Shown here: positions 486 through 58,805 of the stretch, piece by piece | Position numbering within the stretch: the first letter of the stretch is position 1 | Layout of the letters: each line of letters opens with the position of its first letter | Assembly (NCBI GenBank): GCA_037783545.1 | Contig: JBBELK010000453.1 | Coordinates: 1,426,001 to 1,490,000, forward strand | DNA from: Henricia sp. BOLD:AAB3569 | Taxonomy: Eukaryota; Echinodermata; Asteroidea; Spinulosida; Echinasteridae | Reading direction: 5' to 3' | DNA length: 64,000 bases | Program-made: the position numbers and the translations under genes | The notes under the pieces: model-generated | Told to the model about the DNA's origin: nothing | The model's input: the letters and a program-made list of their open reading frames with translations, nothing else | Database searches by the model: none

Positions 486-17612
<17,127 letters not shown>

Positions 17613-20066: not shown

Positions 20067-20904
20067 TTTAAGATTGATGTATAATAAATAATTTTAAGGC
20101 CAAATTAGTGACGTCCGAGTACTAAATTATTACCGGATTCCCTACTTTGTCTGTCGTATCTCGGTGGTGAACCACAAAGAAAGAAGAACGTCCAAATGAA
20201 ATTTTTTTGCACAAAAAGTCCGATCTCGACCAAATTTTGGGAAGATCTGCTTTGCACGTTCCTTAATATGCATCAAATACATGAACTCGAGTGCACCGGC
20301 GCGTGTTATTTATTTGACAGGTTCCCATATTCCATGATCCAACTCGCCGTTGAACCAACTTGACCACTGAGCCAGTTCAACCATTTTAATACCAACTCGA
20401 CCATTGTGCATTGAGTACACACAGCAGTCGAGTTGGTTCGAGTCGAGTTGGTAATGGTAGTGGACGAGGGCAGTGCACCACCTAACGTCCACGAAGGGTT
20501 AAGACTTAACCCTTCTGACAAAAATATCTCCTACGGAGAAAAAAAAGAAACTGTTTTTTTGACGGGCCCTTTGTACACAAGTTCTCACCTAAATGCCCAA
20601 ATGCCAAGATAGGAAATTCTTTCCAGTTTCTGGAAAGTAGCTTCTAAAACAAATACCATTATTGTGGCTGTGTCTCGTCACGTTGGGAAAAAAAAAAAAA
20701 AAATAAAAGAATAAATAAAAAATGTTGTTGGATTCTAAAAAAAAGTATAAAGTACAAAAGCTACATTTGCGATATTCATATGGTTTTGTTTGTTGAATCT
20801 TTTTGAGTGTTGAGTATTCGACAACCCTGTACTTTTGAATTTCAGATGGCATAAATACATCCCGATTAGTGTGATAAAACTGGTTTTAAGTTTTAAACAC
20901 AACC

Positions 20905-22914
20905 ATGGATGTGGAGGGAGAAACGACAGGTGTGGAGCAGCCAATGGAGCCCGAAGTTGACCCATCGTCTATAGCATACACCGTGGAGATCCGTTTAGTT
21001 GACGATGGCTATGCCGCGTGCCCTACGCAGGGGGATGTCATGGATCAACACATCACAGTGGTTGGACATGGCAGAGAGCAGGTGACTGCGGTTCCCATTG
21101 AGGTTATAACGCAACCCAGCGAAGAGATCACCATGCATGATCATCAGACCATAACCACAGCACAGATGGACTCCGGTATGATGGTGACTTTCTCAGACAC
21201 GACCCAGGAAGCTAATTTGCATAATATAACTGTAACCAATGATATGATGACGTACTTGCCCGAAGCAGGCGTTGCGCAGCCCATTACTGCTGCAGACCAG
21301 GCCCATCATCAGATCATAATGACACAGGCACCAAACATGCACGTTTCTGACCCCAGTCAGAATGTTCCGGTGTTGCTGTTACCGACAGTGGCGCAGGAGC
21401 AGGATTCAAACCAGCCTGGTCAAAGTGTCGACACTCAGGAAGATACCATCAAAGAAATGGAGATAGCCTTGGAAGCCCTGACTGGGCTGGCTTCTACGTT
21501 CAATGCTTGGGCCCAGCAAAACCCGCAGGCATTAGGGGAAACGTTACAGCAGCCACAGCCTGAAAAGGCTCATAAATTTAAGCTGGGAAAGCACAAGTCT
21601 GGCAAGCACAAGTCCAAAAAGCATAAGCCGGGAAAACACAAGAAAAAAGGTTCTTGGAAGAAGGCCAAAATGGAGGGTTTGTCTTTTGAAGTGGACAGCA
21701 CAGGAACGGATATGTTCACATGTAAGACTTGCGGGAAGGTTTTTGCTACTCGATTGAAACTAAGAAACCACATGATATCCCACTCTGACGAAAGACCCTA
21801 CACGTGTGAAGTGTGTGGCAGTGGTTTCAAGCGAGCTAGGTACCTTCAAATTCACAAGAAGAGTCACTTTTCAGACACGCTATTTGCCTGTCAGTACTGC
21901 GACAAGGCATATTTTGAGAAAAAGCGGCTACGTTCCCACGAAAAGTGCCACACCAATCCCCTAACGTGCCATATTTGTGGAAAGGCGTACGGTGATAGGC
22001 GAGGCCTTGTCATACATTACAGAACACACACCAATGAGAAACCATTCACATGTCGCATCTGCGGACGCGCATTCACATCAAAGGCCGGCGTCGCCAAGCA
22101 CGAACGTAGCCACTCGGGATTGAAACCCTACGCGTGTAAAATCTGCAACAAAGCGTACACGCAGCCCACCAATCTCTCTGATCACGAACGAACCCATATT
22201 AACGAGAGAACGTTTGCCTGCACGTCATGCCCAAAGGTCTTCCAAGCCAGAAGCAGCCTTAGAAGGCATCGCGTCAAGCACCATCCTGGAGAGAAGCCTA
22301 ATGTCGGCAAGCTTGAACCTCTGCATAGGAAGCGCATCATTAAAGTTGTGACGCCTCGAACTGATAGCATTAGCCATGTTAGCAGAGAAGAGACTGACAA
22401 TACACACTACAAATATGCATGCACTGTTTGCGAGAAAAGATTTAAAAAAGAAAAGTACCTCAGGAAACACAGCAAGTTACATACTGTGGGGACAAAGGTC
22501 TGCTCCTATTGCAACAAGAGTTTTCGAGACAAGCGAGACCTCTTGAACCACGAAAGACGACACACGGGTGAAAAGCCTTTTAAATGTTCCAAGTGTGGCA
22601 AGGCGTTCGTTTCCAGCTCAGCGATGCTGCGTCACGAAAAATGCCACTTGGGCATCAAGCCCTTCATTTGTTCCATGTGTGGCAAGTCTTTCACGCGTAC
22701 CACTGGTCTGCGCGATCACGAACTGATCCACATGGGAAAGAATAAACGATTTCCTTGCGTCACTTGTGACAAAATTTTTGCATCCCGTAGTGCCTTGAGG
22801 AGTCATGAGCGACTGAAGCACCAACAAGCCCAGGTTACAACGATGGAAGTCCCTGTAGAGAATGAGGAAGGAGACACTGTCAGCTTTATCAAATTAATGT
22901 TCACTGAGAGTTAG
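20905..22914 (+). CDS. C2H2 zinc-finger protein with 12 fingers, single coding exon (669 aa)
   Basis: The reading frame is uninterrupted from a well-placed ATG (context aaccATGg) to TAG. Residues 1 to about 215 are acidic and Gln/Thr/Met-rich with no recognised domain: no KRAB, BTB, ZAD or SCAN is visible. Residues about 222-255 form a Lys-rich run of short GKHK-type repeats, probably a nuclear localisation or nucleic-acid-binding tract. Twelve C2H2 fingers follow (about residues 270-640), in a block of seven and a block of five separated by a ~50-residue linker. Several finger linkers are of the TGEKP/NEKP type, such as HTGEKPFKC and HTNEKPFTC, typical of sequence-specific DNA binding. It is therefore probably a nuclear transcription regulator, target unknown. 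A 3' splice site at 20845 (TTTCAG) suggests a non-coding first exon, and GTAAGT after 19548 could be its donor. The leader contains a two-codon upstream ORF (ATGGCATAA). Confidence 0.92.
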   Translation: MDVEGETTGVEQPMEPEVDPSSIAYTVEIRLVDDGYAACPTQGDVMDQHITVVGHGREQVTAVPIEVITQPSEEITMHDHQTITTAQMDSGMMVTFSDTTQEANLHNITVTNDMMTYLPEAGVAQPITAADQAHHQIIMTQAPNMHVSDPSQNVPVLLLPTVAQEQDSNQPGQSVDTQEDTIKEMEIALEALTGLASTFNAWAQQNPQALGETLQQPQPEKAHKFKLGKHKSGKHKSKKHKPGKHKKKGSWKKAKMEGLSFEVDSTGTDMFTCKTCGKVFATRLKLRNHMISHSDERPYTCEVCGSGFKRARYLQIHKKSHFSDTLFACQYCDKAYFEKKRLRSHEKCHTNPLTCHICGKAYGDRRGLVIHYRTHTNEKPFTCRICGRAFTSKAGVAKHERSHSGLKPYACKICNKAYTQPTNLSDHERTHINERTFACTSCPKVFQARSSLRRHRVKHHPGEKPNVGKLEPLHRKRIIKVVTPRTDSISHVSREETDNTHYKYACTVCEKRFKKEKYLRKHSKLHTVGTKVCSYCNKSFRDKRDLLNHERRHTGEKPFKCSKCGKAFVSSSAMLRHEKCHLGIKPFICSMCGKSFTRTTGLRDHELIHMGKNKRFPCVTCDKIFASRSALRSHERLKHQQAQVTTMEVPVENEEGDTVSFIKLMFTES

Positions 22915-45974: not shown

Positions 45975-48900
45975 TCAGCTTGAACATGGACAGCAACCAT
46001 CTTTCTTTTTTTGCCGAATTGAGGACGACGATAGCCGAATTGGTGACCTGCTCGCGTCTTTCTCCTTTGCGTAATGAGCCGGCGATGGCAAAATGGGTCT
46101 AAAGTTCTTTAACTTGACGGCCAGATCCATGAAAATCTTCTCTACTTTTTGCGCGTCCTCGTCTAATTTAGCCGAAGTCTCGTAAAGCGGCATGCTGTTA
46201 GCGTCCGCAAATTTTTGCGCGATGCTGGTGGCGACGACTTTCCTGTCCTCGATGTCGCACTTGTTGCCGATCATAATCCTGGGAATGTCCGGCGACAGCG
46301 AGTGTCGGTCGCACTCGTCGATCCAGTTTGGTAGGCCCTCGAACGTGGACATTTTAGTGATGTCGTAAACGAAGACCACGGCGTGTACATTGCGATAGTA
46401 ATGCTGGACCATGCTCTTGCGGAAGCGCTCCTGGCCTGCTGTGTCCCATAGTTGAAGCTGTCGTAATGGGAAACGAAAATGACATTACTAAAGTCGCAAA
46501 ATCGATACAAATTTTAACAGTTTCATACAGCAGCCAATTGAAATGTTATACAAAATGTACGGGGTCTCCAGGACTCGCTTTTGTCATTACTTTTAGAAAT
46601 AGATGAATTGGGGGTGGGGGCGTGGGGGGGGGGGGGGGTGGGGGGGTCAGCCATGCCTTGTAGTGTATTTAAATTAACATTGGGCGATTCATTTCAGATA
46701 TGTGAGTCAATTATAAATGATTCCAGTCACAATTGCTTATATTTCAATACTGAATTACTGATCCTTCAATGTGCTGTAAATTGCAGGCCTTGTTTGGTCA
46801 GGGTACAGTTTTTGCCTTGGCCTTATCAGGTCACTTCCCACCTAATCCTTGCTAAATGGATTGGGGACTAATTGGATTAACTGGGTGCTAATCTGTTTAC
46901 AGCTTGGTAATTGAACTGCAAATTAGCAGTAAGTAGTTTGGGATCCTTGGTAAGCCTGTGTGTCCTTACCCACCCTAAAATACTAATAAACAAGTTTGAT
47001 CCAAAGACTGGGTGGGGTGTAATGGGGGGTCAAGAGAGTAAAAGGTGATTTTCAAAACCTGCATACTCCAAAGACCAAAAGGTCATACTTCTGCAGTCTC
47101 TGTGTGACTACGCTAGACTACACAATCATGCTACAATGTGGGGGATCTATACAAAAGGTGTAGTTTTAGCACTAAAAAAGGTAGAAGCACCACAGGTATG
47201 GTGAAAATACATTAGGAAGAAATGGGTTTGTGTATTTGAGCATTGGATTGCATGTTTTCAGCTGTACGTTTCAACATTACGCGAAGTTAATTGCTGAACA
47301 TCAATCGATAGAGGGCGCCTGTGCAGCTGCATGGCGGATGCACGATTGTACATGTATACATCGTGCTTGTGTAATGTGGCGCGTGCTATGTATGTGTGGG
47401 AAAAATAATAAGAATACTCCCCAAGGAGTTGAGAAGGATTAAGGAATGATATTACCGAGCCCAATGACCAGGGGTAATGATCATGTAAAGCGCATTGAGA
47501 CCTTTAAATGCGCTATATAAGAATTGGACATTCTGGACTACAACTAGAGGCGTTTTCACATTATTTCACCATGTGCTGAAATGTACATGTATGTTCGCCT
47601 GTTGGAAAAATTTACCCATGTACAGACTACAGTGTCAACGCGAGTCAACCATGCGTTGCTTTCAGATTATGTCCTCTATTTAAAGGTATTCAACAAATTT
47701 ATGTAGCCAATGTCACTGCATAAAACTGTAAAATAACACAAAACGAGACAATCAATAATCCAGGTTTATGGGATCAGACATGTAATGCGACCGCAGGCCA
47801 CATGAAGCAAAGTAGAGTACAGGCCAACATAGAATTCAACATTCAGCCGCTGTTGACAGATGGATCCTAATCAATAATGAATGCTTTTACACGGACATAA
47901 ATGGGCTTCACTGTGTGTACTAGTATGCCCGTCAGTGGCGGATCCAGCCTCATTAAAATACAGGAATACAATGGATTTCAGGGGGCTGTGGCACCCGCTT
48001 TTCCTTTCACAAGGCCATTCTTTTAAAATGCTAAAGGTAATCAGCACCCCACCCCCTTTCCCCCGTATTATACAAAATCAACTCCCTTTAAACATCACGT
48101 GTCACTATGAACATCTAACAATGGAAATTGGGCACACACCATTGTTACTAACAATGGGGTCACAATGAACATGTACATGTTTTTGCTCATAGTGTGTAAG
48201 GGTGATTGACCAAGTGATTGAAATTTTCAGAATCTTCACGGGGCCAAAACAATGTCTCAAATGTGGGTAGAATGAAAGACCGAACACATTTATAAATTAT
48301 GCTGAAAACTGAACCTTTATTGAGAATGACAAAAAATTATAAAATAATTAAAATGAACACCACCTACTTCGTTCAGATAAACTTAATACACTGATCTGTT
48401 ACACTAACACGATTTGTAACAGGAGCTGTTGAACTAACATGAGATGTAACACTAACACGTCCTAAATACCATGTTAACATCGAGTTAACATGGTGTTTCA
48501 ATTCTGATTAGGTTAACAGATCTGTTACACTAACATGTAACACAGAATTGTGACAGATACACAATGTAGTCTGCTATTACATGGTGTTAACCTGGACATT
48601 CAGTTAGAGGTTGAGATTAAACAGATCTGTTAAACTAACACTAACACACACACAGAATTGTGACCTTACCCACTTTGTCCCATTTTGACATCTATTCAGA
48701 TAGGCCTATTCACCAGAATGTGGTTTTTTTTGAAGAACAAATTTTACCTCATTTTAATCTCCACAATTACTGTTTCTTTGTAACTTGTACAAAAGGTCCC
48801 ATTTCAGCTGAGTATACCGGTAGGGTGCTTGCATGGGTGACTAACAATACTCTGCTAGAATTGCCTTCCGAGAATGCAGTTAAAATATGTTGACATGTAT

Positions 48901-51694: not shown

Positions 51695-52302
51695 ATGTCT
51701 ACAAATAAGCCTCGATGGGTTCCTCTGGAATCAAATCCTGATGTAAGTTGAGCCCTTTCTTGACGGTGTCGGTTGTCGTCGTTCTCGAATTTTCCACCGG
51801 CTGCGGCCTGCATGCATGCACTAGGCAGGGTACATGCATGGCCGGCTCATCAGATGGCCCATCACTTCATCAGATCAGATCACGACATGTGTGCAAACGG
51901 ACACAGACGAACCTCCATGCACCTACCAAGATCTTCACTGACGAATAAATATTCTAATTCTATTCTAGTGTTCATGACATTTTGACCTAGCTAGCCTGAA
52001 TGCCTCTGGCCGTCACACATTCTGGCCATCTCACATGACGGCCAGAGCAGTTAACATGGTTAATCTTAACCGCCCCTAATGCACCTATCAATTGTTTCCC
52101 CCACCCCTCCCCCCCCCCCCCCATAGGTGGGGGTTTGGTCACATTTTTCATGCCCCAGGGTGGGGCATTTGGCCCATTATCTGTGCATTTTTGTGCATGT
52201 TTTGCACCCGAGGGTGGGGATTTTTGTCACCTAAATGTTGCCCCAGGGGTGGGGATTTTGTCACGCAAAAAGTTACAATCCCCACCTCTTAGGTGGGGTA
52301 GC

Positions 52303-52337
<35 letters not shown>

Positions 52338-55300
52338 ACAATTGATAGGTGCATAACAACCAGAATTTTTTGTAGCGAATTTACTACAAGTTTGAGCGGT
52401 ATTACCCTCTCACCTAGGACAGATATTTTTTAATCCTCCTCTCATTGAGTGATGCTCCAGTTGGAGCTAATCAATTATTCTATCAAGATCAAGATCAAGA
52501 TATTGCTGGGAAATCTTAAGCAATGGGACCTGCATTGGTGTAGTTGGGGCGTAACAGAATCATTGTAAAGGGGCATCCTGTTCTTTCTTAAAACAGTAGG
52601 CCTAGTTTCTATAATTGCTGATTAAAGTTGGGTTTTTTTTTTATTCGCACAATGATTTCACAACCTTATGTAACCGTATCTTGTTTCTTTTTCTTTACAT
52701 TACAGGTTATGACCAAGGTAAGCAATTGACATTTTTGTGTACCAGTAGCTTTAGTTTGATCATGGAGCTACCTCCATGGTTTGATCGCCAGACGATTGTA
52801 AGCATGTGCACAAGTAGAGGGAAACTTGGGGGCGGATCCAGGAATTTTTCCAGGAGGGGGTTTTGCCACCAGGGAGGGGTTTTACCCATCAGATTTTTAT
52901 GTCTGCTTGTTTCGGACAGGCGGACACGCAAAAAATGCATTACATTATATTTTTTGGTGTCGGAGCAGGGGGGCATTTTGACCCCCAAAACCACCCCCTC
53001 TGGATCCGCGCCTGGAAAGAATTCCACGTCCAGCTACTGATTCCGACCCCTTGAACTGCCTTGTACAAAACTCATGGAGCAGCAAGTTGGATAAATTATT
53101 AAGTTCCAAAAACACTTTTGTCCTACTCTGCTTGTAATAGTAGTAATCACCCTCCAGCCCCAGACCTGCCCTTGTTCCCTTAATGCATAGTTCCGATTTT
53201 GGCCAGTTAACTCCGCCCCCTTGGATATTGTTGCTATGCCTCACACGCTATCATCAAAATGTCCACACACACTGCACAAACCAATGGGACTTTCAACGGA
53301 AAGCACAGATTCATTGGAGAAAACTCAAAGGTATTCATGTTTCAGGGTCAACAGTTGTCTTAGAACACACTGAGTAAAGGGCCAGTAATACAGGGATGTC
53401 ATATCATCATGAAATACGTGCTTTTTTACCTTTGAACAGGGAGTCGTCCGGCCTTGAAACCAAAATTTCACCCAGATCACCGCATACAACACTGTACAAA
53501 CTGTTGTTGTGTTGTTGCGAGGCAATGCACTTTGACCTATGTGGGCGCTGTCTGCTAGCTCTGTTGTGATTGGTCAGCAGGTTCGGCTTGATTGACAGGT
53601 CGGAACTAGGCATTGGCTCTTCACTCCAACCCATCTTTCTGCCTGACTGCTAGAAATGTTTGTGTTCCTCCTTGGTAGCCTCATGTTTTAATGTGCTCTT
53701 TCTGCATGTCCTATGTCATTTTGCCTGTCCTAGTCATTTTTCCTTTGAAAAAGACACCTTGGACACAAGGCCACAAATTTTCATGTGATTTTTAATTCCA
53801 TGTTTACATTGGTCCCGAGCTCGGGATCAAAATTGATGTGTCAGTGTTAACCGCAATGATCCTGAGTGCCACCTTTACATTCTGTAGTTGATCTCGAGCG
53901 CGGTGCCAGAAGTTGCATTCAAGATCATCCTCTATGTGTGTATGTACTGATCAATGTGTGTGTGTGTGTGTGTGTTGTGCATGTACATGTACAGTGGTAC
54001 AAGGCCACTTCAATTTCGCGGGCTTTTCCCCCGCTACGGCTGTGGAGCGGATGCGGCAGGATGCGGTAAAGATAAATTGCTTATCTAACCGCAAACTAAT
54101 CCCGAGCTTGGGATTGAACCCTCCACCAACGCGAGACCAAAATCTTGGGGTCTGATCCGGGGGCCAATTTGGTCCCGATGAGAGCATTTACACTCAGATT
54201 GTGATCTGGGATTGACCCTGAGCTTGGGATCAAGTGTAAACAAGGTGTTAGTATTCAGCTTTTGGTTGTAGTAGAAGTGTGTATACCAAGCAACAAAAGA
54301 AATGCAAATTTTCAGTTTAATCAAAATTTGACAAATTTCTTTTGTAATTAAGTTGACATCGAAATATTCACATAACACCGGTGTGAAGTTGGTTACTTAT
54401 TCGACGTTCGACGTTCAATATTTAATAAGGAGCTGTTACTTATTCAACATTAAATAAGGAGCTGTTAGTACTTATGCACCTATCAATTAGTCTCCCCCCC
54501 CCCCCCCCCCCCCCCCCCCCCCAGGGTGGGTCATTTGATCCTTTGAAATAAAATTTTCTCTGCATTTGTATGTCGAATAAGTAACAGCTCCTTATTGAAT
54601 GTCGAATAAGTGTAACAGCTCCTTATTGAATGTCGAATAAGTGTAACAGCTCCTTATTGAATGTTGAATAAGTAACGGCTCCTTATTGAATATTGAACGT
54701 CGAACGTCGAATAAGTAACCAACTTCACACCGGTTCACATAACAGCTTCATTATGCATGACTGCATGAAGCTTCTGTGTGCTGAAAATTTCCACTCTCAG
54801 ATTGACTGTTAATTTTTTTATCAAAAAGAGAAAAACAAATTTTTTTTTTTTTAATATAATTTTTGTACATATGTAAACATTTTCTCTTTGGTAACCTGTG
54901 ATATCTCATTTTTATGACATGTCTTTTTGGTGTACAGCTAATACAGTATTTGCATATACAAATGCATGGTCTTTAAAACAGTTAACTCCAAAATGTTTAC
55001 TGTATTTGTGTGCAGTACATCCACAATATGGGAGTCCCCGAAAAATGGATCTTTGTGGATGTTCTAGGATTGGACGATGAACTGCTAGGTATGATACCCC
55101 GACCCGTGTCAGCTCTCATTGTGCTCTTCCCAGAAGGAGAGAAGGTAAGAACTCTAGGGACTCGGACTGTATACGCATAAACCTTGTTTAAAGTACAGAA
55201 ATTGCTTCAATAAACCTTATTGACGTTCTCAATGCATCATGGGATTGGATGACAAATGTTGCCAGCGAAGTGCACGTAAACCTATGAGGCGGAGGCCAAC

Positions 55301-58215
55301 TCGGCAACTTTTTAACTCATTTTCAAGAAAGCCATGGAACTCCATTAAATTGTTAAATATGTAATGTTACTAACCATGGAGTTGCCCATCACTTTGTGTC
55401 CTTCGGTTAAAACCCATTATAAATGCCAAGTTTATTTATATTATTGTTATTATTACATATCATGATTGTCTGTAGATTAAAAGTGCCCAGGAAGAAATGT
55501 GTGCCCGCATTGAGAAAGAGGGCCAAGAGCTGAGCGATAAGGTGTACTTTATGAAGCAGACCATTGGCAATGCCTGCGGGACCATTGGAGTACTGCACGC
55601 TGTGCTTAACAACCAGGATGATACAGATTTCAAACTCGGTAAGAATTTAATATTATTTGAGATCAGTGGTGAATTTGGTATTTTTTTCGTATACATTGAA
55701 CAAATGTTTTAAGGAAATTACCTCCTGAAATCAATATATCATCCAATTCTAAGATATAATTCCCACTTGCACTTCTGTCAGAAATGTTGCATTTCTGAGA
55801 TAAAAAAAAAAAAAATTACTGCAGAGAGTAATGGACAAATTCACAGCGTGAGTGCTCCATGCGTAAGCGCGACAATATAGGGTGTTGCATGCAAGCATAA
55901 ACGGTTCATCTCGTGCACTAAGCGATTCCCCTGATGTTTCCGACAGGATTCGAACCTGGGCCACAGAGGCAGACAGTTAGGAATATCAAACTGATATCTT
56001 TGTTTATTTCAGGAGGTCTAGTTGCGGACTTTGCTGAGAAGACCAAAGGAATGGATGGAGCAGCCAGGGGTGCATATCTAGAAAATGATGCGGGTATCTG
56101 TGAGGCACACAGTTCCAGTGCACAGGAAGGACAGACACAGGTAACTATTATCTTGTTGACATCACCTTTCAAGGTCTTTCTCCTCCATAAAGGCAGCTTA
56201 AAGGCCCAGTGTGTCATTTGCAGATTGACTAATTTTAAATTAGGCAAAAAAAACAAAAAACTATGTTTAGCGTTAGCGCGCGTGTCACTTATAACCCTGC
56301 GCGTTGAAGCCTTTTAAAAAAAAAAAAGCAAAACCCTCCCCCTCTACAGATCTGCTATTGATGCGTGTGCACACATATTTATATAAATTCATCTTCGGCC
56401 TGTGCACGAAGTGATTTTGGGACGAAGTGGCATTTGGGCAAGGTAGTGTTTGGAGAAAGTGATTTGGGGCGAAATGGCACTTGGGCAAAGTGGTTTGAGG
56501 GCGAAATGGCACTTGGGCAAAATGGTTTTGGGGCGAATTGAATTTACGTCTCGCGAGATGAAAAATAATTGTTTGGCTCATTTCTCAAAGACTATAGCGC
56601 TTCAGACAAAAATATTTCAGGGGAAGTTTTCAGCCGTCGTCATGTTTATATCGTGTAAGTTATGTGTAAATTTGTGAACATTTCTGATTCTTCGAGAATA
56701 CCAATCATGTGTACTGCCTTTAATGCTTGTAACCAAGTAAAGTCACAAGTCCAAAAAAAATGGTCACTAAAGTCTGATTCAAGTCAGCAACTCGAGTCAA
56801 CATGCATTAGCAAATGTAACACTTATTCTACTCATTGATTTAGGCACCACGAGCCGAAGAGTCCGTAAAGCCTCATTTTGTAGCCCTGGTCCACATTGAT
56901 GGGTCCCTGTACGAACTCGATGGTTGCAAGCCATTCCCCGTTAACCATGGCAAAAGCAGTGATGATAATTTCCTTCAGGTAAGACTCCCCCAGATGCGTC
57001 TGATATCTTTTTTAAAATCGACAGGCACCTGCGGCCGAGGACAAGGCGAAAGCACATTTCATAGCTTTAGTTAGTGTTGACGGGTGCCTGTATGAGCTTG
57101 ATGGCCGAAAGTCGGTGCCGATCAACCATGGTAAAACGACTGCTGATGGTTTTGTAAAGGTAAGGTCGATGTGTGTTGTGATGGTGTCGTGGCGTTGTAA
57201 GTGACAAAATGTTTGCCATTTTTTGCCAAGCTGTTATCAAGTGTGTTGGCAGTTATCCATCGAACCAGGGGCATGCACTGGGGGAAATGCATACTGTAGA
57301 ATACATTTGACTTTCCATAAAAATATCCGCTAAAGGACAACATTTTTATGTTTTGGTAAAAATGGCTTTTTTAACTTGCAATTTGTTTTTTTTAGAAAGA
57401 TGTGAATTTGCAATTTCCAAATAGTGTAGAATTAATGTTTACAATACAGACATGTCTTGGTATCTTAGCTTTGATAATGAGATAAGGTAAATTAGCTTGC
57501 ATCAGGTAGAATGGATGTTAAGATTTATTTTGATAGTGTTGATAATTTTGATAATATTTTATTTGAGAAAATTGTTTAACGATTTCAAGTCTTTTTGACA
57601 AGTTTCTCTTTGAAAAAGCTAGCTGCTGGTTTTACCCTGTAGAACATGTACTCGAGTTCAAATTACACTGAGCAGAATTTCATTAAATCTTTCAATAAAA
57701 GTCTAACTTGCATTTAGAAGATGAATGTAACTTGAATTGATAAAGTATAGGTTCTATGTAGTACGTAATAACGGCAGCTTTCTTTTCCTAAAAGAAATGG
57801 TTCAAAATTTGAAATTTAATCGTAAAAGTTGAAAAATGCCTTGGTGTCCCCATTTACGTCATTAATTATTTTTCTCGAATATTATCAAAACGATTCTAAG
57901 ACATGTCCAACTGCTTGTAAAGTATTTTCAAAATGTACACCATTTAGAAATTGCACAGGAATCCCTTTTAAAAATTGGTAGCTTGGAAGGGCCATTTTTT
58001 TTACAAATGCATCAAAATGTTTCACTTTAGCTCCTGTTTTTATGGAAAGACCTGCATGCATGTTTGAGCAAAACACATCCTTCTAATTTCACATGTATTA
58101 AAAAATTTATGGTCTTCAGGATGCTGCCGAAGTGTGTAAGAAAATAATGGCGACGGACCCGAATGAATTGAACTTCAACATCATGGCTTTAACAGGAGGG
58201 AAACCCTTGTATTGA
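51695..58215 (+). CDS. UCHL3: UCHL3-type ubiquitin carboxyl-terminal hydrolase with duplicated alternative exon
   Basis: This is a peptidase C12 cysteine protease that removes small adducts from the C-terminus of ubiquitin (and NEDD8 for UCHL3). Exons: 51695-51742, 52706-52717 (12-nt microexon, VMTK), 55016-55144, 55476-55638, 56013-56140, 6A 56844-56978 or 6B 57025-57159, and 58120-58215. With one exon 6 the protein is 236 residues; human UCHL3 has 230. Catalytic Gln and Cys are in [12 protein letters not shown] (exon 4). Catalytic His and Asp are in exon 6 (HF...ELDG spacing of 15 residues), and both versions have them. The exon 6 borders match a 45-residue block of human UCHL3 with no gap. 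The C-terminus TGGKPLY is longer than the vertebrate one. UCHL1 and UCHL3 arose from one ancestral type; the sequence resembles UCHL3 more (FPEGEK, PRPVSA, VNHGK). The start is the only Met before the conserved [10 protein letters not shown]. Confidence 0.95.
52080..52353. mobile_element. MITE with long G tract (TGCACCTATCAATTG termini)
   Basis: TGCACCTATCAATTGTTTCC ... GGAACAATTGATAGGTGCA in UCHL3 intron 1. It includes poly-C near the left end and a ~39-nt G run near the right. A truncated relative is at 54474, with its own poly-C run. Confidence 0.85.
53183..53613 (-). mobile_element. MITE family D, copy 2
   Basis: Full-length inverted copy in UCHL3 intron 2. Ends are ATGCATAGTTCCGA and TCGGAACTAGGCAT. 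Most of its length aligns with the 15190 copy, including the TGTGTGTGGACATTTTGA region. Confidence 0.85.
53957..53974 (+). repeat. (TG)n microsatellite
   Basis: A pure TG run in UCHL3 intron 2. Confidence 0.9.
54378..54733. mobile_element. 356-bp MITE with 11-bp target duplication (CCGGTGTGAAGTTGG)
   Basis: Long inverted ends CCGGTGTGAAGTTGGTTACT / AGTAACCAACTTCACACCGG enclose several GAATGTCGAATAAGTGTAAC tandem units and a fragment of the 52080-type element. TTCACATAACA occurs on both sides (54367-54377 and 54734-54744). It is in UCHL3 intron 2. Confidence 0.92.
56844..56978 (+). CDS. UCHL3: UCHL3 exon 6A (alternative)
   Basis: 135 bp, 45 codons, phase 0 at both ends. The acceptor is gatttag and the donor is caggtaaga. 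It begins [12 protein letters not shown] and ends KSSDDNFLQ. Catalytic His (of HFVALV) and Asp (of YELDG) are present, 15 residues apart. The KPFPVNHG end is close to the vertebrate KPFPINHG, so this is the more conserved version. Confidence 0.9.
57025..57159 (+). CDS. UCHL3: UCHL3 exon 6B (alternative)
   Basis: 135 bp, phase 0 at both ends. The acceptor is tcgacag and the donor is aaggtaagg. It begins [12 protein letters not shown] and ends KTTADGFVK. It matches exon 6A at about 26 of 45 residues. Catalytic His and Asp are kept, while KPFP near the Asp is KSVP. It starts only 46 nt after exon 6A ends. Being open, equal in length, spliceable and yet quite diverged, it looks maintained by selection rather than decaying. 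Confidence 0.88.
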
Positions 58216-58684: not shown

Positions 58685-58805
58685 TAAGTGCTTTTCTCAA
58701 GAATATGCTTAAAGCTCATAGCGAGCTCAGATGGGACTCGAACCCACAACACCCTGCATACCAGTCGGATGTCTTTGGGTACTTGACCACCGAGCTTGGG
58801 TTCGT
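58685..58805 (-). mobile_element. tRNA-derived SINE (second family), copy 2
   Basis: The minus strand has CTCGGTGGTCAAGTACCC and a perfect B box GGTTCGAGTCC. The acceptor stem does not pair as in a functional tRNA. It shares its tail with the 7961 copy. Confidence 0.7.

What the first reader, a model, noticed from the sequence alone, without database searches (positions are those of the whole stretch)
56844..57159. UCHL3 has two tandem, probably mutually exclusive, catalytic exons
Exons 6A and 6B are both exactly 135 bp, phase 0, open and bordered by good splice sites, and both align without gaps to the same 45-residue block of UCHL3. Both keep the catalytic His and Asp, yet they differ at about 19 of 45 residues, so they are old and apparently selected. 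The intron between them is 46 nt, shorter than animal introns usually tolerate, which would physically prevent joining 6A to 6B. Splicing either one gives two deubiquitinases with different residues beside the active-site Asp (KPFPVNHG against KSVPINHG). I know of no UCH family member described with an alternative active-site exon, though I could not search.
Basis: partly seen in the sequence, partly recalled or inferred. Interest (0 to 1): 0.87.

Follow-up and report, generated by a model that had tools for sequence, protein, structure and literature searches.

The report
Alternative active-site exons in starfish UCHL3
In what looks like a starfish, the gene for a ubiquitin-trimming enzyme carries two old, different versions of the exon that holds half of its active site, set so close together that probably only one can be used at a time, so the animal can probably make two forms of the enzyme.

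Summary
A UCHL3 gene lies on the + strand (exons 51695-58215). Its sixth exon is present twice in tandem: 6A 56844-56978 and 6B 57025-57159, each 135 nt, phase 0, open, with good splice sites, 46 nt apart, sharing 26 of 45 residues. Both keep the residues aligned to human UCHL3 His169 and Asp184. 6A-6B, 6A-human and 6B-human share 26, 28 and 26 of 45 residues; synonymous sites are saturated; neutral simulations reject a copy dead since the duplication. 6B is closer to human (26/45) than the constitutive exons are (88/180). The only YTNAY branch point in the 46-nt intron has its A at nucleotide 25, below the ~50-nt spacing that published work uses as the steric limit; 53 introns sampled in this genome are all over 200 nt. 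This is the classic steric type of mutually exclusive exon pair, here swapping a catalytic His/Asp block. No transcript or related species could be examined, so use of both exons is inferred. Mitochondrial code and gene order point to a starfish. My text searches found no such exons reported in a UCH enzyme. New member of a known kind.

The parts
51695..51742 (+). UCHL3 exon 1 coding part, starts ATG ([16 protein letters not shown])
   Evidence: aligned to human UCHL3 from residue 6 of the protein on
52706..52717 (+). UCHL3 exon 2, a 12-nt microexon (VMTK)
   Evidence: fills the gap-free alignment to human UCHL3; splice sites AG/GTAAGC
55016..55144 (+). UCHL3 exon 3
   Evidence: Pfam PF01088 match at G000:C453:1481013-1481144
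55476..55638 (+). UCHL3 exon 4, holds the oxyanion Gln and catalytic Cys ([13 protein letters not shown])
   Evidence: Q91 and C97 invariant; PF01088 match
56013..56140 (+). UCHL3 exon 5, ends phase 0; first part of the crossover loop
   Evidence: loop limits recalled
56844..56978 (+). Exon 6A: second half of the crossover loop, catalytic His and Asp ([13 protein letters not shown])
56979..57024 (+). 46-nt intron between 6A and 6B, GTAAGA...ACAG; only YTNAY site is CTGAT with its A at nt 25 (57003); no AG between that A and the 3' splice site
57025..57159 (+). Exon 6B: alternative version of the same block ([13 protein letters not shown])
58120..58215 (+). UCHL3 exon 7 (last coding exon), phase 0 start, stop TGA

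Best explanation
6A and 6B are a tandem-duplicated, mutually exclusive exon pair in a single-copy UCHL3 gene. Exon 5 is spliced either to 6A or to 6B, and either one to exon 7, giving two 236-residue UCH enzymes that share Cys97 and Gln91 but carry different versions of the block with the second half of the crossover loop, the catalytic His171 and Asp186, and the loop after the Asp. Joining 6A to 6B is blocked because the branch point of the 46-nt intron lies about 24 nt from the 6A donor, too close for U1 and U2 to assemble together; retaining the intron shifts the frame and meets a stop. The duplication is old and both versions have been kept by selection. Shown by computation: the two exons, phase, splice consensus, constraint, branch-point geometry. 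Inferred: that both are used, that choice is regulated (by tissue or stage), and that the isoforms differ in ubiquitin/NEDD8 handling or crossover-loop gating (net charge of the block -3 in A, 0 in B).
For: Gene and exon anatomy. Differences at codon positions 1/2/3 = 14/9/27 (chi-square 10.36, p 0.0056); pS 0.818 against pN 0.236 with dS saturated. 6A and 6B keep 28 and 26 of 45 residues of human UCHL3, against 88 of 180 for the constitutive exons. Neutral drift of one copy by 25 changes leaves it as human-like as 6B with P 0.0006 starting from 6A, or 0.0176 from the most favourable hybrid ancestor. Single YTNAY branch point at nt 25, 21 nt from the 3' splice site, no AG between. Steric limit <50 nt as used in PMC5740500 (57 of its human clusters, 9%) and in PMC7969005 for OGDH exons 4a/4b with branch points 25-41 nt from the donor (passages). 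Frame 1 read-through of 6A into the intron ends at a stop inside 6B. Genome intron sample: 35 CCT and 18 myosin introns, shortest gap 219 nt, six of these pairs checked for stops in all frames; the other six UCHL3 introns are 331-2298 nt.
Against: No RNA data and no second species: use of both exons is not shown. 6B has lost Pro188 and Phe189 (human numbering), which 6A, human UCHL3 and UCHL1 keep, and the B protein scores a little lower against human UCHL3 (251.6 against 263.6 bits). Open frame plus kept His and Asp are weak evidence alone (P 0.18 after 25 neutral changes). With only 20 neutral changes from the hybrid ancestor the relic model is not rejected (P 0.095). 45 codons in one genome is little data.
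Confidence: 0.85

Rival explanations
1. Both exons are spliced into one mRNA, giving a 281-residue protein with the His/Asp block twice.
For: 270 nt keeps the frame, so the reading frame does not forbid it; donor and acceptor of the 46-nt intron both fit the consensus.
Against: Branch point about 24 nt from the donor, below the ~50-nt limit; 46 nt is far below the 53 sampled introns; a second copy of two catalytic strands would have to be fitted into a compact fold (inference).
Confidence: 0.05
2. Only 6A is used; 6B is a relic of an exon duplication that is decaying.
For: 6B has lost two residues that UCHL1, UCHL3 and 6A share. A recent loss of use would leave no mark yet.
Against: Open frame, intact splice sites and branch point, 26 of 45 identity to human, near-symmetric change (8 positions changed only in 6B, 6 only in 6A, relative to human), and neutral simulations.
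Confidence: 0.07
3. Exon choice is set mainly by competing RNA structures or a splicing factor, the short intron being secondary.
For: Two overlapping TGCATG sites (58053, 58057) in the downstream intron; pairing of the 46-nt intron with the downstream intron at -29.9 kcal/mol, reached by 3 of 400 shuffles.
Against: 3 of 58 other 960-nt pieces of the window pair equally well; four of the five pairings tested that did not involve the first 300 nt of the downstream intron, or covered it whole, gave 34, 38, 3 and 37 of 100 shuffles; no comparative data. It could act together with the steric block.
Confidence: 0.1
4. Assembly artefact: two alleles or two genes placed side by side.
For: The assembly does keep both haplotypes as separate contigs in places (UCHL5 on C116 and C697).
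Against: The exons differ at 50 of 135 bases, whereas the two UCHL5 copies align at 87-96% identity including introns; flanking introns of the two exons are unrelated (8 and 12 of 40 bases match); exons 3 and 4 of UCHL3 match PF01088 only on C453.
Confidence: 0.01

Closest known systems
Human tandem duplicated exon substitution events next to active sites: KHK, ACOX1, CAMK2D, PKM (PMC9741552, section 10 read)
   Same: Tandem homologous exons swapped in an enzyme near the active site; catalytic or ligand residues kept in both (KHK Arg108; all five FAD residues of ACOX1 with 28 of 55 residues kept). 26 of 45 here with both catalytic residues kept fits that pattern.
   Different: Different, unrelated enzymes; supported there by transcripts and peptides. 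Here two of the three triad residues lie in the swapped block, and there is no transcript evidence yet.
Steric mutually exclusive pairs: alpha-tropomyosin (named in a reference seen) and OGDH exons 4a/4b (PMC7969005, abstract and passages)
   Same: Joining is blocked by a branch point under ~50 nt from the upstream donor (OGDH 25-41 nt; here about 24 nt).
   Different: In OGDH the intron is 118-131 nt in birds and mammals with distant branch points; here the whole intron is 46 nt and the branch point is at an ordinary distance (21 nt) from the 3' splice site.
UCHL3 (peptidase family C12), human PDB 1UCH/1XD3
   Same: Full-length match, E 1.5e-77 (A) and 6.7e-74 (B) to the best human UCHL3 chain; Q, C, H, D kept.
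   Different: An alternative catalytic exon, which I found in no listed paper for this family.
Lineage-specific mutually exclusive exon duplications in deuterostome G-alpha genes (PMC5896119, passages)
   Same: Local single-exon duplications in non-vertebrate deuterostomes giving mutually exclusive isoforms.
   Different: Other gene family; reported for lancelets, not starfish.

Membership tests
UCH deubiquitinase family (Pfam PF01088, C12), UCHL3 subfamily | Match to the family profile above its curated cut-off | tested here: met
   233.1 bits (A) and 230.8 bits (B) against 27
UCH deubiquitinase family (Pfam PF01088, C12), UCHL3 subfamily | Cys/His/Asp triad and oxyanion Gln in both isoforms | tested here: met
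   Q91, C97, H171, D186 invariant in the alignment with human UCHL3 and UCHL1; role of the residues as in PMC12409989 (passages)
UCH deubiquitinase family (Pfam PF01088, C12), UCHL3 subfamily | Closest to UCHL3/UCHL1 rather than UCHL5/BAP1 | tested here: met
   251-264 bits to UCHL3, 195-204 to UCHL1, at most 89 to UCHL5 and 59 to BAP1; the genome's other PF01088 loci look like UCHL5 (two haplotype contigs) and BAP1
UCH deubiquitinase family (Pfam PF01088, C12), UCHL3 subfamily | Deubiquitinating activity of each isoform | not testable with these tools
   needs an enzyme assay
Mutually exclusive tandem-duplicated exons | Adjacent homologous exons of the same length and phase coding for the same part of the protein | tested here: met
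Mutually exclusive tandem-duplicated exons | Both copies under constraint | tested here: met
   with the limits told under evidence against
Mutually exclusive tandem-duplicated exons | Transcripts include exactly one of the two | not testable with these tools
   no RNA data held
Steric class of mutually exclusive exons | Donor to branch point under 50 nt in the intervening intron | tested here: met
   one YTNAY, A at nt 25 of 46; the branch point is predicted, not mapped; in a 46-nt intron any branch point is under 50 nt
Competing-RNA-structure class | Significant selector/docking pairing | tested here: inconclusive

The most novel reading that the evidence does not exclude
A starfish makes two UCHL3 enzymes by swapping the exon with the catalytic His/Asp and half of the crossover loop, so one gene gives two deubiquitinases with different substrate gating (for example ubiquitin against NEDD8, or different leaving-group size), chosen by tissue or stage; the switch is old in echinoderms and is the first alternative active-site exon in the UCH family.
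Probability: 0.3. Interest if true: 0.7.

Novelty: new member of a known kind. Interest (0 to 1): 0.5.

Why it matters
UCHL3 cleaves ubiquitin and NEDD8 adducts, and its crossover loop and triad alignment are much-discussed controls of substrate size and activation. A natural pair of versions of just that block, on an otherwise identical enzyme, would be a ready-made experiment: 19 changes kept by selection, one shared scaffold. It would also show that evolution can tune a deubiquitinase by splicing in the catalytic block itself rather than by gene duplication (vertebrates instead have UCHL1 and UCHL3).

Tried and rejected
Neutral relic, double inclusion, assembly artefact and RNA-structure control were tested as rivals (see there). 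Third copy of the exon or copies of other UCHL3 exons in the window: none at E < 0.09 beyond the known exons. Relatives in viral contigs and in prokaryote genomes: 43 and 103 pattern matches, none encoding a relative. The USP family search was run for intron sizes and not used. Papers PMC9013439, PMC8773573 and PMC6017914 (passages) gave nothing decisive. In one search the His position in one side test was off by one; that number was dropped and redone. In one search, 1 of 36 exon pairs (C139) was dropped because it is one open frame, checked (0 stops in 581 codons). Intron counts treat haplotype contigs as separate, and very short introns could be read through by the search and missed. Structure prediction was not used: the spliced proteins are not letter for letter in the window's DNA, which the tool asks for. 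Which exon is ancestral could not be settled: too few invertebrate UCHL3 sequences here.

Full report
The gene. Six coding exons with consensus splice sites plus the two versions of the sixth give a UCHL3 gene on the + strand: 51695-51742, 52706-52717 (12 nt), 55016-55144, 55476-55638, 56013-56140, 6A 56844-56978 or 6B 57025-57159, 58120-58215. With 6A or 6B the product has 236 residues. Best PDB match of both is human UCHL3 (E 1.5e-77 and 6.7e-74); both pass PF01088 with over 230 bits.

The pair. 6A and 6B are each 135 nt, phase 0, open in frame 0 only, 46 nt apart; 85 of 135 bases and 26 of 45 residues agree. With human numbering (exon residue i = 158 + i, recalled catalytic numbers His169 and Asp184), both keep His and Asp. 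The 19 differing positions are 161, 164-166, 168, 171, 175, 176, 179, 186, 188, 189, 191, 196-198, 200, 202, 203, that is the end of the crossover loop, the strand pair, the loop after the Asp and the following stretch. Net K+R minus D+E is -3 for 6A and 0 for 6B.

Age and selection. pS is 0.818 (dS saturated) against pN 0.236. Third positions carry 27 of 50 differences. 6A and 6B are as far from each other (26/45) as from human (28/45, 26/45), and both are closer to human than the constitutive exons (88/180). Neutral change to 50 differences gave 26 or more identical residues in 1 of 20,000 and 0 of 20,000 runs. Asymmetric relic models: 25 neutral changes on one copy leave it as human-like as 6B with P 0.0006 from 6A and 0.0176 from a hybrid ancestor made to be as human-like as possible; with 20 changes the latter is 0.095. 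The open frame with His and Asp kept is weak evidence alone (P 0.18 at 25 changes). 8 positions changed only in 6B and 6 only in 6A relative to human, so neither copy looks abandoned. Intron flanks of the two exons show no likeness (8 and 12 of 40), again an old duplication.

Why one at a time. The 46-nt intron has one YTNAY site, CTGAT, its A at nt 25, 21 nt from the 3' splice site with no AG between: a normal acceptor for exon 5 to 6B, but only about 24 nt from the 6A donor. Published surveys take under 50 nt as sterically blocked (PMC5740500; PMC7969005; passages). Retention shifts the frame and meets a stop within 6B. Double inclusion would keep the frame, so the barrier is spliceosomal, not nonsense decay. 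In this genome, 35 introns of CCT genes and 18 of myosin genes are 219 nt or more between profile matches; the six pairs looked at directly have stops in all frames and the shortest reads as about 210 nt from donor to acceptor. Haplotype copies are counted separately and very short introns could be missed. The other UCHL3 introns are 331-2298 nt.

Genome context. The genome held has 740,731,340 bases in 2104 contigs. The exon 6 peptide matches only 6A and 6B. PF01088 gives 11 matches on four contigs: C453 (this gene), C116 and C697 (UCHL5-like, two haplotypes) and C1266 (BAP1-like); in the listed matches their His/Asp block appears once each. So there is one UCHL3 gene and no retrocopy with exon 6. 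The mitochondrial contig reads as an echinoderm: frames are open with AGR as Ser, the COX1 motif STNHKDIG needs AAA = Asn, ND1 and ND2 lie on the minus strand and COX1-ND4L-COX2 follow each other; that this order marks starfish is recalled, not tested.

Control of choice. Two overlapping TGCATG sites lie in the downstream intron, a lead for Rbfox (recalled). Pairing of the short intron with the downstream intron is stronger than most shuffles (3 of 400) but 3 of 58 other window pieces do as well. Neither is evidence yet.

Known relatives. Tandem duplicated exon swaps are a known class; a survey of human cases says they tend to avoid ligand sites, and where they overlap them the residues are usually kept, as in KHK and ACOX1 (PMC9741552, section 10). 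The pair here fits that class and its steric subclass. I found no listed paper that describes it for a UCH enzyme (open-licence papers only; long listings seen in part).

Verdict. What is missing is a transcript and a second species.

Noticed in passing
window 52706-52717: Exon 2 of UCHL3 is a 12-nt microexon (VMTK) needed for the gap-free match to human UCHL3.
   Followed up: partly
window 58053-58062: TGCATGCATG, two overlapping TGCATG sites about 60 nt upstream of UCHL3 exon 7.
   Followed up: no
window 20890-22914: A 674-codon open frame that reads as a C2H2 zinc-finger protein, without introns in that stretch (name from the visible finger motifs, not searched).
   Followed up: no
window 45975-46484, minus strand: Open frame that reads as the end of a Rab-type small GTPase ([13 protein letters not shown]-terminal CCPCSS); name recalled.
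   Followed up: no
window 8006-8078 and 58723-58796, minus strand: Two tRNA matches in Rfam (48.1 and 36.9 bits against 29), possibly tRNA-derived repeats.
   Followed up: no
G000 contig C955: Three copies of COX1 at equal spacing of 16,221 bases, the length of mitochondrial contig C2104, suggesting a tandem mis-assembly of the mitochondrial genome.
   Followed up: no
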